A program made the translations under genes and the position numbers. Shown here in pieces: positions 35,132 through 40,471 of a DNA stretch of 64,000 nt. Under the pieces are notes generated by a model. That model worked only from the letters and a program-made list of their open reading frames with translations, had not been told where the DNA came from and searched no databases. Positions within the stretch are counted from its first letter, which is position 1. Each line of letters opens with the position of its first letter. The stretch spans positions 5,332,001 to 5,396,000 of the forward strand of contig NC_003279.8 in assembly GCF_000002985.6 (NCBI RefSeq), in the 5' to 3' direction. The DNA comes from Caenorhabditis elegans. Taxonomy: Eukaryota; Nematoda; Chromadorea; Rhabditida; Rhabditidae.

Positions 35132-35816
35132 TCAGCATACATAATCGAGCAATTCGTCATTATCTACATCTGAACCAGCAACGGAAGGATTTGAAGAAGT
35201 TGGAGTACCTTGCATGAAAAACTCGTCATCATCGATATCACGAGAACTGGCAACTTTCAGTTCGAGAGCACTGATTCTAAAATAGAAATCAATATTTAGA
35301 TTAAATTTCGATCAGGGAATACATACAAATTCCGAAGCTTCTCGTTCTCGCGTTCAATATCTTCAAGCTTCTTACGATTATTTTCCTCAAAACTTGTTAG
35401 CTTCGACAATTGACAGTGCATTTCCTCCGTCTTTTTCTCAACTTTCTTGGTTTGTTCTTTTCGCATAACTGACTGAAATAAAGCGTTTTAATTCTGGAAA
35501 CTTAAAAAAAGAGTGTTACTTTTTTGTTTTCCATTTTCAATTGAATTGACTTCTGAATTTTTTGAAAGCCAATAACTCGAGCGAGGCGTTTGTGAATATC
35601 CGTACTCATCACACCCACATCGCCGAACATTTTCTTCACATTCTTCGGCAGACTTGCATCCATTTTGAGAGTTTTTGTCGGGATTTTACACAAATGACAA
35701 AAGTCAGCAGTGGGAGTTGTTCGGCATGTTTCACAGAAGACGTGGGAGCAGGCGGTGATAAAAAATTGTCTTTTACTTGGCGAGCATCCACATCCATTGC
35801 AAACGATGAACTCCAT
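35132..35816 (-). CDS. zhp-1: Zip3-like RING finger protein (putative meiotic SUMO/ubiquitin E3)
   Basis: Three exons: 35520-35816, 35327-35472 and 35132-35276, giving 195 residues. An N-terminal RING finger has ligands Cys6, Cys9, Cys23, His25, Cys28, Cys31, Cys40 and Cys43 (CNGC, CSHVFCETC, CHLC). It is followed by a coiled coil of about 90 residues rich in Lys/Glu (KSIQLKMENKK, then EKKTEEMHCQLSKL and RKKLEDIERENEKLRN) and an acidic C-terminus ending DVDNDELLDYVC. This is the layout of the Zip3/RNF212/HEI10 family that acts on the synaptonemal complex and crossover designation. C. elegans has four such genes (zhp-1 to zhp-4). I assign zhp-1 from the neighbourhood; the domain call itself is firm. 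Confidence 0.85.
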
Positions 35817-36477
35817 AGTGCCTACAGTTCTGAAATAAATGCAAATTGTTATTTTTGAACCATGTTTGGAACGATTAAACTTCTAAAACATCATAGAATA
35901 CAGGGAGCTCTCCCGGGAGAAAAGCACGAATTGCTTTTTAAAAAAACACAAATTTAAAGGAGCTTTCGAACAAACAACGCGTGGGTCCCGCACCGATCGC
36001 CATTTTCAAGTACGGTATTGCGTTGGCATTGCTGGCATTCACTTTTCCGGTTTCTTCGTCTGTTTGTGACAGTTTTTCGATAATTTTCAGCAATTTTCAT
36101 ATTAGTCTTATCTCAAATTTAATGAATATAGTTAGAAAATCTGTAATATTAACTAAAAAGTAGGATTTTGATAAATGTTAGACTTGTTTTAGAGATAGAA
36201 AAATGATCTCCATTTGATCTAGCCGCCAAAAAATAAATTATTCTTTCTTCATCATTCATCCAAATCCACCCTACAATGTTTAATGCCGAGACACCTCGAA
36301 ACTGTATTTTTTCCGTACAACTTTCATTTTCTCCTAGATTTTCTCTGGACGCTTCGCATCTGTTATCTTTTTCGTTTGTTTTTCACAGCGTGTTATCCTC
36401 TGTAGTAAATGACATGTGGATAATCTTGGCCCCTCTTCATATTTTTTTTTCAGATCTAATATTGCAATAGTAATAAG
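35817..36477. promoter_or_regulatory. Divergent region between zhp-1 and wago-2
   Basis: 660 bp with no coding signal. The right end has a T-rich TTTTTTTTTCAG acceptor at 36442-36453, 24 bp before the wago-2 ATG, a likely trans-splice site. One GTGGGTCCCGC word (35983) resembles the GC-rich arms of the repeat at 30740. Confidence 0.45.
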
Positions 36478-37060
36478 ATGTCTCCTCATCCACCACAACC
36501 GCATCCACCGATGCCTCCAATGCCACCAGTCACTGCTCCACCAGGAACTATGCCTCCAATGCCTCCAGTTCCCGCCGATGCTCAAAAGCTTCATCAAATC
36601 ACTGGCAACGACGCATGCATCAAACGTTTGCAACAGTTAAAAGTATATCTCTGTGCATTTAAAAATATTTCTAATGTCCTATTTGCAGGTTGAGAATGGC
36701 GCGAAAATGTACATGAAGCCAGCCGAACCTGGACAATTGGGTAGAAAAGTGGATATTCAAACTAATATCTTCGGAGTTAAAGTGACAAAGGAAACCACTG
36801 TCCACCGTTTTATGGTTCACGCAAAGGCCAATTTGACTCCAACTAACTAGGGAATGGTGTTACCCCTGCAATCGCTAGGAGGACAAAACAAAGTGAAAAT
36901 GGAAGATCAGATCTATGGCTACAAGAATCAGTTTTTGGAATCTGCTTAACTCGGTCCCAAAGCTGAAATTTTCGGTCTTAAAAAGTAGTCCTTTTTTTGC
37001 TCAAAATGCCGTTTTTCGTGTGTAGAAGTGGCTACATAAAAGTTTGGCACTGCAGCCGCC

Positions 37061-37144
37061 GTTCGAATGGCCGATTGGTGAACTCTTGTGCTCATTAATC
37101 TAAAGGTCACGGGTTCGTTCCCCACTAGGTATTAATTTTTTTTT
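37061..37144 (+). other. tRNA-like Pol III cassette in the left arm of the foldback element
   Basis: An A-box-like TGGCCGATTGG (37068-37078) is followed 32 bases later by a B-box-like GGGTTCGTTCC (37111-37121) and then by a T9 run (37136-37144), the usual Pol III stop. The intervening CTCATTAATCTAAAGGTCAC resembles the anticodon-arm to variable-loop region of an elongator tRNA-Met. The acceptor and T stems pair poorly, so it is not a functional tRNA but looks tRNA-derived, as in SINEs. Confidence 0.5.
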
Positions 37145-37338
37145 GAATTTTTCCTCTAGCATGAAATATGCACAAAAACACGGTTTCTTCAAAGTGAAAA
37201 TTTATCAAAAAAAGAAAACTTCCAAAAAGTTTCCAAATTACTTTTATGGTTCCCAGGAACCAAAAAATTTATTCCGAAGTTACCAAAAAACGGAAGAAAC
37301 CGTGTTTTTGTGCATATTTCATGCTAGAGGAAAAATTC

Positions 37339-37422
37339 AAAAAAAAATTAATACCTAGTGGGGAACGAACCCGTGACCTTTAGATTAATGAGCATAAGAG
37401 TTCACCAATCGGCCATTCGAAC
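37339..37422 (-). other. tRNA-like Pol III cassette in the right arm of the foldback element
   Basis: Mirror copy of the left-arm cassette: A box at 37405-37415, B box at 37362-37372 and T9 (as A9, 37339-37347) on the minus strand, with one base different in the anticodon region. The two cassettes would be transcribed toward each other. Confidence 0.5.
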
Positions 37423-40400
37423 GGCGGCTGCAGTGCCAAACTTTTATGTAGCCACTTCTACACACGAAAAACGGCATTTTGAGCAAAAAAGGACTACTTT
37501 TTAAGACCGAAAATTTCAGCTTTGGGACCGAGTTAAGCAGATTTCAAAAACTGATTCTTGTAGCCATAGATCTGATCTTCCATTTTCACTTTGTTTTGTC
37601 CTCCTAGCGATTGCAGGGGTAACACCATTCCCTAGTAAGGAAGTGACGTTCACCAAAAAAGGGAAAGAAGATTTCGTCGTTCTTGACCGTCGCGATAAAT
37701 GCTGCAACTTATTTTTCCATGCCGTGGAGAAAAATCCTGAATTCTTCAAAATGAAGGACGGAAATCAGATTGTTTATGACGGCCAATCAACTCTCTACAC
37801 AACTGTCAACTTGTTCTCAGAACTGGATGCCAACGGTACGAAGTCCAAAGTCTTCCAAATCAACGGAGCTGATATCAACAATGACGACCTTAAGACGTTG
37901 CCTTGCATCTCTCTCGAGATTTATGCCCCACGAAACAACTCGATCACGCTCTCTGCTGAAAATCTGAGCAAGCGTACTGCTGATCAAAACATTGAAGTGA
38001 ACAATCGGGAATACACTCAATTCTTGGAACTTGCTTTGAATCAACATTGCGTGAGAGAAACGTAAGTGAATTTAGGAAAGTCTTGAAAAACATTTCTTCA
38101 TTCTAGAAAACGTTTCGGATGCTTCGAGCACGGAAAGGTATATTTCCTCAACGCCACCGAGGAAGGATTTGATCAGCGAGACTGTGTCGACGTCGGCGAT
38201 GGAAAACAGCTTTATCCCGGTCTCAAAAAGGCAATTCAATTCATCGAAGGTCCTTATGGTCGTGGACAGAACAATCCATCTGTCGTGATTGATGGAATGA
38301 AAGCTGCGTTCCACAAAGAACAAACTGTGATCCAAAAACTGTACGAAATCACGGGACAAGATCCTTCAAATGGAATCAATAATATGGCCCGTGAGAAAGC
38401 CGCGGCAGTGATGAAAGGACTTGATTGCTATTCGACGTATACAAACAGAAAGCGCCATCTAAGAATCGAAGGGATCTTTCACGAAAGTGCCTCAAAGACC
38501 AGGTTCGAGTTGCCCGATGGAAAAACGTGCTCAATCGCCGAGTATTATGCGGACAAATACAAGATCACTCTACAATATCCGAACGCCAATTTGGTGGTTT
38601 GTAAGGATCGAGGCAACAACAATTACTTCCCGGCTGAACTGATGACCATTTCAAGAAATCAACGTGTGACCATTCCTCAGCAAACTGGCAATCAATCTCA
38701 AAAGACAACGAAGGAGTGCGCGGTTCTTCCTGATGTTCGTCAGAGAATAATCATTACCGGTAAAAATGCTGTCAACATTTCACTCGAGAATGAGTTGCTC
38801 GTCGCTCTCGGAATCAAAGTTTACTCGGAGCCTCTGATGGTCAGTTTGTGCAAATCGTTAAAAAACATTGATTTTCTTTCTCCAGGTTGAAGCGCGTGAG
38901 CTCGACGGAAAAGAGCTCGTATACCAGAGATCGGTAATGTCGGAAATGGGAAAGTGGCGTGCACCTCCAGGATGGTTTGTAAAACCCGCGAAGGTTCCAG
39001 AGTTATGGGCTCTTTACGCTGTTGGTAATCAAGGATGCAGATTCTCCAGTGGTGACGTGAAGTAAGATTGATAGAAATTTATTTGAATCGATTAAATTAT
39101 TTAGTCAACTTGCCGGAATGTTCGTTGATTCTTGAAAGAAGAAAGGTATGACGATCAAGCCACCATGTGAAACGGGCCTTTTCCATACGGATAAAATCAT
39201 GGATCAGCTGGAGAAAGTAGCTGCGAGCGGTTGCAAATATGTCTTGGTGATCACTGATGACGCAATCACTCATCTCCACAGTAAGTTGTTTTCGTTCCTT
39301 AAGTGTTCACTTTCCATTGAAAAATTTCAGAGCGGTACAAAGCATTGGAACAGAAATCGAGGATGACTATCCAGGATATGAAAATCTCCAAAGCCAATGC
39401 TGTTGTCAAGGATGGAAAGAGATTGACTTTGGAGAACATCATCAACAAAACCAACCTGAAGTTAGGTGGCCTCAACTACACCGTTTCGGATTCCAAAAAA
39501 AGCATGACCGACGAACAATTGATCATCGGAGTTGGTGTTTCTGCCCCACCGGCTGGAACGAAGTTCATGATGGACAATAAAGGACATCTTAATCCGCAAA
39601 TCATTGGTTTCGCTTCAAATGCTGTTGCAAACCATGAGTTTGTAGGCGATTTCGTCTTGGCTCCTTCAACACAGGATGTAATTGATTTAGATTTTCGAGA
39701 GTTTTATAATATAATTTTTACAGACAATGGCTTCAATTGAAGACGTATTGCAAAATTCAATTGATTTGTTTGAGTCGAGCCGCAAAACATTGCCAAAACG
39801 TATTATTATCTACAGGAGTGGAGCATCGGAGGGTTCTCATGCTTCTATTCTGGCTTATGAAATCCCACTGGCTCGTGCCATCATTCATGGATACTCGAAA
39901 GATATCAAATTAATTTACATCGTCGTCACTAAGGAGCATAACTATCGCTTCTTCCGTGATCAGGTAAATTTATTTGTATCATGCTCCCTTTACCGTAACT
40001 TTTCAGCTTCGTTCGGGCGGGAAGGCGACTGAAATGAATATTCCACCTGGTATTGTCTTGGATAACGCCGTCACGAATCCAGCATGCAAGCAGTTCTTCC
40101 TAAACGGTCACACGACTCTCCAAGGGACAGCGAAGACACCACTGTACACCGTTCTTGCTGACGATTGCGCGGCTCCAATGGACCGCCTTGAGGAGCTAAC
40201 ATTCACACTTTGTCATTACCACCAAATTGTTGCTCTGAGCACATCGATCCCCACTCCACTTTATGTGGCGAACGAGTATGCAAAGCGTGGAAGAGATCTC
40301 TGGGGGGAACGAACGTATGTTTTTTTTTGTTTAAAACAAAAATAATTTATATTTTACAGAGTGGATGGTCCTATCGAAGCTAAGGAGTCGCATGGCGAGC

Positions 40401-40471
40401 GTCTCAAGGAGTTGACGAATGAAATCGGTTACAAGCAAACTGATTTCAACGAGAAGCGCATCAATGCTTAG

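What the first reader, a model, noticed from the sequence alone, without database searches (positions are those of the whole stretch)
36847..37635. An Argonaute gene interrupted by a near-perfect 789-bp foldback transposon
The wago-2 coding exon is split by an element with 343-bp complementary arms and a TAA duplication; removing it would leave the frame continuous, and the element itself brings an immediate stop codon. The arms differ at only two positions that I found, so the event is young. If the locus is transcribed, the RNA would contain a very long hairpin, a natural Dicer/ADAR substrate, inside a gene of the RNAi machinery itself. The insertion may be strain-specific.
Basis: partly seen in the sequence, partly recalled or inferred. 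Interest (0 to 1): 0.75.

Follow-up and report, generated by a model that had tools for sequence, protein, structure and literature searches.

The report
Tc4-like hairpin transposon in dead Argonaute
A small hairpin-shaped jumping gene sits inside a recently dead copy of a nematode RNA-interference gene, which also carries a second disabling mutation; both the kind of transposon and the dead status of the gene were already known, so this is mostly ordinary.

Summary
A 789-bp element (36847-37635), flanked by a TAA duplication, splits the second exon of a WAGO-type Argonaute gene (wago-2/F55A12.1; name recalled, location consistent) in a C. elegans reference-like assembly. Its 344- and 343-bp arms differ by two substitutions and one 1-nt indel. 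It is a non-autonomous Tc4/Tc5-type DNA transposon: 18 of 18 two-ended copies scored have a TNA duplication, 17 of 18 sit in CTNAG, the first ten bases equal those of Tc4v, and two longer relatives carry Tc5-type transposase segments. Its full-length relatives are 1.54-1.58-kb palindromes; this copy lacks 773 bp from the centre, off-centre. Otherwise the frame is pristine (no indel against wago-1, dN/dS 0.10), so the gene died recently. A paper lists it as a WormBase pseudogene, with no diverged, pseudogenised or missing alleles relative to the reference among 403 wild isotypes; this does not favour a strain-specific insertion but does not test it. The predicted RNA hairpin is extreme; whether it makes small RNAs or is edited could not be tested.

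The parts
36478..40471 (+). wago-2 (F55A12.1; name recalled) coding region, 9 exons: 36478-36642, 36689-38061 (split by the element), 38107-38839, 38886-39061, 39105-39280, 39331-39677, 39724-39963, 40007-40314, 40360-40471 (stop included)
   Evidence: Exons built from splice sites and matched exon by exon to the paralogue at C1:7.236 Mb, whose boundaries were set by homology and show GT and AG at the introns; PAZ and Piwi domains
36847..37635 (.). non-autonomous Tc4/Tc5-type foldback element, 789 bp
36847..37190 (+). left arm, 344 bp; 100% identical to one arm each of the copies in L010 (C5:182000-183562) and L011 (C4:7344350-7345895)
37293..37635 (-). right arm, 343 bp; 2 substitutions and 1 indel against the left arm
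37191..37292 (.). 102-bp loop: inner part of one full-length arm whose partner is lost in the central deletion
36844..36846 (.). target-site duplication TAA, left copy (target CTAAG)
37636..37638 (.). target-site duplication TAA, right copy
36848..36850 (+). in-frame TAG brought by the element
39133..39135 (+). second lesion: in-frame TGA at codon 562; TGC in the paralogues taken as wago-1 and wago-5
37513..37519 (+). possible cryptic 3' splice site ATTTCAG in the right arm; with the intron 1 donor (36643) it would give a frame open for 548 codons, up to the TGA
   Evidence: prediction only, one of 8 combinations tested
37068..37122 (+). tRNA-like A-box/B-box pair inside the left arm (mirror copy in the right arm), followed by T9 at 37136-37144
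   Evidence: 1 of 3000 shuffles as good; but no Rfam match and none by ARAGORN at default threshold

Best explanation
A Tc4/Tc5-type palindromic DNA transposon jumped, through a transposase supplied in trans, into a CTAAG site in exon 2 of the wago-2 Argonaute gene and duplicated TAA. The copy there is a 789-bp version of a 1.56-kb palindrome, shortened by a 773-bp off-centre deletion across its middle, made either before the jump or at the site. The gene also took a TGC-to-TGA change at codon 562, before its Piwi domain. Together they make wago-2 a recent pseudogene, probably tolerated because wago-1 and other WAGOs overlap in function. Shown: element, duplication, family signature, both stops, purifying selection on the gene until recently. 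Inferred: transposase in trans, time and place of the central deletion, order of the two lesions, redundancy as the reason for survival.
For: TNA duplication in 18 of 18 two-ended copies scored and CTNAG in 17 of 18, this copy included (16, 2 more). First ten bases equal to Tc4v, which was located with published Tc4v primers; the three Tc4v copies read also have TNA in CTNAG. Relative L008 has DDE_1 (E 1.1e-5) and Transp_Tc5_C (E 1.2e-23) segments; L009 has two Transp_Tc5_C matches. Seven fetched relatives align to their own reverse complement along their length in one piece, at 93-98%, and the junction against L010 is a clean 773-bp loss with no microhomology. wago-2 against wago-1: 2839 aligned bases without an indel, dN/dS 0.097; branch counts 81 synonymous/42 nonsynonymous against 85/33, Fisher p 0.33; neutral share of the branch about 4% (-2.5 to 10.6%). 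Element: 3 substitutions and 1 indel off the family majority in 789 bp, leaving out sites where the family itself is mixed. WormBase pseudogene according to PMC10763538 (passages).
Against: Beyond the first ten bases the arm found no match in the three Tc4v loci or the one Tc5 locus compared; the only Tc4v match, 47 bp at 83%, lies in what is here the loop. No copy with the same 789-bp layout was seen among the hit coordinates (by eye), so the origin of the deletion is open. Of the three changes off the majority, two are shared with 1 of 36 arms each and the indel with 2 of 36, so they may have come with the source copy. One of the 18 copies (L010, the closest by arm) sits in CTAAA, not CTNAG.
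Confidence: 0.92

Rival explanations
1. The element is an exonised or intron-like part of a still useful gene: transcripts splice from the intron 1 donor into a cryptic acceptor in the right arm and give a shortened Argonaute.
For: Of 8 donor-acceptor combinations tested, one (36643 to 37519) stays open for 548 codons. RNA of the locus is reported (passages).
Against: The open frame still ends at the TGA before the Piwi domain. One open frame in eight trials is near what chance gives (my estimate, not a call).
Confidence: 0.04
2. The locus now works as a regulatory hairpin: its transcript is cut into small RNAs or edited, and secondary 22G RNAs spread into exons shared with wago-1 and dampen the live paralogue.
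For: Very stable 343-bp hairpin. 248 sense 22-mers are shared with wago-1, longest identical stretch 71 bp. RNA of the locus is reported (passages).
Against: No small-RNA or editing data could be examined. The element itself shares no 22-mer with the wago-1 or wago-5 regions, so spreading is needed. A recent pseudogene explains the sequence without it.
Confidence: 0.05
3. The insert is an assembly or cloning artefact.
For: Long palindromes are prone to cloning errors (recalled).
Against: Exact TAA duplication at the family's CTNAG target, and differences from the other copies.
Confidence: 0.01

Closest known systems
Tc4 and Tc4v of C. elegans
   Same: Foldback; TNA duplication in CTNAG in the three Tc4v copies read; identical first ten bases CTAGGGAATG; Tc5-type transposase domain
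   Different: No match of the arm to three Tc4v copies beyond the tip; one 47-bp match at 83% in the loop part. This copy has no transposase segment and a central deletion
Tc5 of C. elegans
   Same: TNA duplication in CTNAG at the one copy read (L087); same transposase C-terminal domain family
   Different: Different terminus (CAAGGGAAGG) and arm; about 3.2 kb with 450-bp inverted repeats
wago-1 (R06C7.1) and wago-5 (ZK1248.7), C. elegans WAGO Argonautes (names assigned from recall and position)
   Same: wago-1: same exon layout, 866 of 946 codon positions with the same residue, terminal stop counted
   Different: the wago-1 frame is open to its terminal stop; wago-2 has two lesions

Membership tests
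Tc4/Tc5-type DNA transposons | 3-bp TNA target-site duplication | tested here: met
   TAA here; 18 of 18 two-ended copies including this one; copies with one recognisable tip or none in the stretch fetched were not scored (listed in the full report)
Tc4/Tc5-type DNA transposons | insertion in CTNAG | tested here: met
   CTAAG here; 17 of 18 (L010 is in CTAAA)
Tc4/Tc5-type DNA transposons | long inverted terminal repeats, foldback | tested here: met
Tc4/Tc5-type DNA transposons | DDE transposase of the Tc5 kind encoded by autonomous copies | tested here: met
   for relatives only, not for this copy: L008 DDE_1 and Transp_Tc5_C, L009 Transp_Tc5_C; their arms are 87-91% identical to this one. Whether they encode a working transposase was not tested; HTH_Tnp_Tc5 in L008 stayed under its cut-off (15.1 of 22.2 bits)
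Tc4 proper | arm sequence homologous to Tc4/Tc4v beyond the tip | tested here: not met
   against L081-L083 only one 47-bp match at 83%, in the loop part
WAGO-clade Argonaute genes | N, PAZ and Piwi domains, close WAGO relatives | tested here: met
   PAZ E 1.7e-27, Piwi E 1.9e-75; two N-domain models at E about 1e-5 but under their cut-offs; exon 3 is 95% and 88% identical to two paralogues
functional Argonaute gene | open reading frame through Piwi | tested here: not met
   TAG from the element and TGA at codon 562

The most novel reading that the evidence does not exclude
The dead Argonaute gene plus its hairpin is a young, self-made regulatory small-RNA locus: read-through transcripts fold, feed the RNAi machinery, and 22G RNAs spreading into the shared exons tune the live paralogue wago-1, so a transposon has turned a duplicated RNAi gene into a feedback brake on RNAi.
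Probability: 0.04. Interest if true: 0.75.

Novelty: new member of a known kind. Interest (0 to 1): 0.3.

Why it matters
It explains the loss of one C. elegans Argonaute: selection kept the protein intact for almost all of its history since it split from wago-1, and then two separate hits ended it recently. That fits the reported variation of WAGO genes among wild strains (PMC10763538, passages). The element also gives a clean 343-bp hairpin inside a locus with reported RNA, a ready test case for how worm RNAi and RNA editing treat long hairpins in pseudogene transcripts.

Tried and rejected
tRNA origin of the arms: an A-box/B-box pair with tRNA spacing and a T9 run stands out (1 of 3000 dinucleotide shuffles as good; the consensus is recalled and was chosen after seeing the sequence). 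But Rfam gives no match at E up to 10, ARAGORN none at its default threshold or at 90% of it; at 70% and 50% it gives weak, inconsistent calls, and the B-box lacks its usual A (recalled). A search of the 88-bp block in the assembly returned 39 places, 38 of them in places already hit by the element itself and one (C6:9647094) also there; no tRNA gene was recognised among them by me. Left as a side note. A paper search on TFIIIC, B-box and transposons listed 3 papers that I did not open.

Rfam miRNA-like hits to the hairpin (MIR5048, 101.1 bits against a gathering score of 160) I take as what any long hairpin can give. Precise removal by splicing was rejected on the boundary bases; bypass by a cryptic site was tested and cannot rescue the Piwi domain. 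PIF/Harbinger was considered because of the TAA duplication, and dropped when TGA, TCA and TTA duplications and Tc5-type transposase turned up. A branch stop at codon 744 printed by the script is an artefact of a codon with several changes; the translated frame has only the TGA at 562 and the terminal stop at 946. In one search I first joined the flanks at a wrong base; searches use the right one.

Literature: the Tc4 and Tc5 founding papers (PMC51441, PMC1206037) are not held. No held paper contains 'wago-2', 'transposon insertion' and 'elegans' together as whole words. F55A12.1 occurs in 7 papers (one of these only as F55A12.10), passages read in 4. 'wago-2' with 'pseudogene', 'C. elegans' and 'Argonaute' gave 8 papers; in the six of them looked at, one has the gene in a table, one uses WAGO-2 for an Ascaris protein, and the rest matched text such as WAGO-22G or had no whole-word match. 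The eLife survey PMC10101689 has no 'wago-2' (passages). So this insertion is not described in what I saw; the papers' supplements could not be opened.

Full report
Where it is. The window is C1:5332001-5396000 of an assembly of 100,286,401 bases in 7 contigs, whose size and contig lengths are those I recall for the C. elegans N2 reference. A RING-like zinc-finger reading frame next door (35502-35882, minus strand, by eye) fits zhp-1, F55A12.10, which PMC5906097 puts on chromosome I (passages). The Argonaute gene is therefore taken to be F55A12.1, wago-2; this name, and the names wago-1 (C1:7.236 Mb) and wago-5 (C2:5.814 Mb) for its two nearest paralogues, are recalled.

The element runs from 36847 to 37635, starts CTAGGGAATGG, ends CCATTCCCTAG and is flanked by TAA on both sides. 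Its arms differ by two substitutions and a one-base indel. The reading frame meets TAG just inside the element after codon 108, and is continuous across the junction when the element and one TAA are left out. As RNA it folds to -657.6 kcal/mol against a mean of -179.6 for 20 shuffles.

What the element is. A DNA search of the assembly gave 115 matching pieces, many of them the two strands of the same palindrome (a lower bound by the tool's own note). I fetched 20 of the larger places, 16 weaker ones (with two paralogue regions) and wider stretches of four. Scored for both ends: 15 fetched copies and the wago-2 copy, two short ones (L052, 346 bp; L053, 148 bp). All 18 carry a TNA duplication; 17 sit in CTNAG, L010 in CTAAA. 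Not scored: L013, L020, L021, L026, L027 (the first, third, fourth and fifth also in the wider stretches L089, L090, L088, L091), L044, L045, L048, L049, L050 and L057, each with one recognisable tip in the stretch fetched, and L042, L043, L046, L047, L051, L054, L055 and L056, with none. Copies located with the published Tc4v primers (PMC6829131, passages) begin with the same ten bases, and the three read show the same kind of duplication and site; the one Tc5 copy read has other end letters and the same kind of site. After those ten bases the arms of the present family and of Tc4v show no match; a 47-bp match at 83% lies in the loop part. A 3.5-kb relative, L008, has DDE_1 and Tc5 transposase C-terminal segments; two Tc5_C matches lie in the 4.2-kb relative L009. 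I conclude: a Tc4/Tc5-type family, not Tc4 itself, and this copy is non-autonomous.

How this copy arose. Seven fetched relatives align in one piece to their own reverse complement along the whole element (L010, L011, L017, L019, L020, L022, L024; 93-98% identity; L020 has a damaged right tip); L018 does so in two pieces. Those with both ends are 1544-1576 bp long. So the full element is one long palindrome. Against L010 the 789-bp copy lacks 773 bp, off-centre by 102 bp, with no microhomology at the joint. Other copies (L012, L014, L015, L016, L023, L025) are shortened in other ways. Off-centre loss of the middle is a known route by which long palindromes become stable (recalled). I saw no other hit with the 789-bp layout among the coordinates, so the loss may have happened at this site; that is inference.

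The gene. Built from its splice sites, wago-2 matches wago-1 in all nine exons without a gap: 2522 of 2839 aligned bases identical (2838 coding, one past the stop), 866 of 946 codon positions with the same residue, the terminal stop counted. Two things break it: the element, and TGA in place of TGC at codon 562, where wago-1 and wago-5 both have TGC. The TGA lies before the Piwi domain. dN/dS against wago-1 is 0.097. With wago-5 as outgroup (its first exon not included) the wago-2 branch has 81 synonymous and 42 nonsynonymous changes and the wago-1 branch 85 and 33 (Fisher p 0.33); 55 sites were ambiguous and 19 differing codons lacked the outgroup. That leaves about 4% of the branch (-2.5 to 10.6%) for neutral decay. 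The element departs from the majority of 36 family arms at three sites of 789, plus one indel; two of the three are shared with 1 of 36 arms and the indel with 2 (sites where the family is itself mixed are left out). With the mutation rate I recall, 2.7e-9 per site per generation, three changes mean roughly 1.4 million generations, with wide error. So 'young' is right on the scale of the gene's history. Which lesion came first is unknown.

Strain-specific? PMC10763538 (passages read) counts wago-2 among seven Argonautes classed as WormBase pseudogenes, with nucleotide diversity 2.09e-4 and 0 diverged and 0 pseudogenised or missing alleles in 403 isotypes. This is measured against the reference and does not test the insert. 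The same paper reports all but two of 62 RNAi genes as expressed in every strain examined, wago-2 not being one of the two; PMC3297578 (passages; it calls F55A12.1 wago-10) reports its RNA rising in synMuv B mutants. Confusion between wago-1 and wago-2 reads may affect such data.

Mechanism and function. The best reading is ordinary: a transposon insertion plus a nonsense change in a redundant gene. A cryptic acceptor in the right arm gives one long open splice form among eight tested, still cut short by the TGA. A role as a hairpin source acting on wago-1 is possible, since 248 sense 22-mers are shared, longest stretch 71 bp, but nothing here supports it directly.

Noticed in passing
window 37068-37122 and mirror copy 37361-37415: tRNA-like A-box/B-box pair with tRNA spacing and a T9 run inside each arm; by eye this block is among the best kept in diverged relatives such as L042-L045. 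Could be a fossil tRNA or a transposase-binding block.
   Followed up: partly
L084 1738-6036 (C5:6416000-6422200): A further Tc5-type element (Transp_Tc5_C) with 1037-bp inverted repeats 99.9% identical, starting TAACTAGGGAGTTATTC; its flanks do not show a clean TNA duplication.
   Followed up: no
L009 (C6:124930-129300): Transposase-bearing relative whose Tc5_C-coding part is present twice, in opposite orientation, within a 1.0-kb inverted repeat.
   Followed up: no
L020 (C4:12607580-12609340): Full-length palindromic copy with its right tip lost or rearranged.
   Followed up: no
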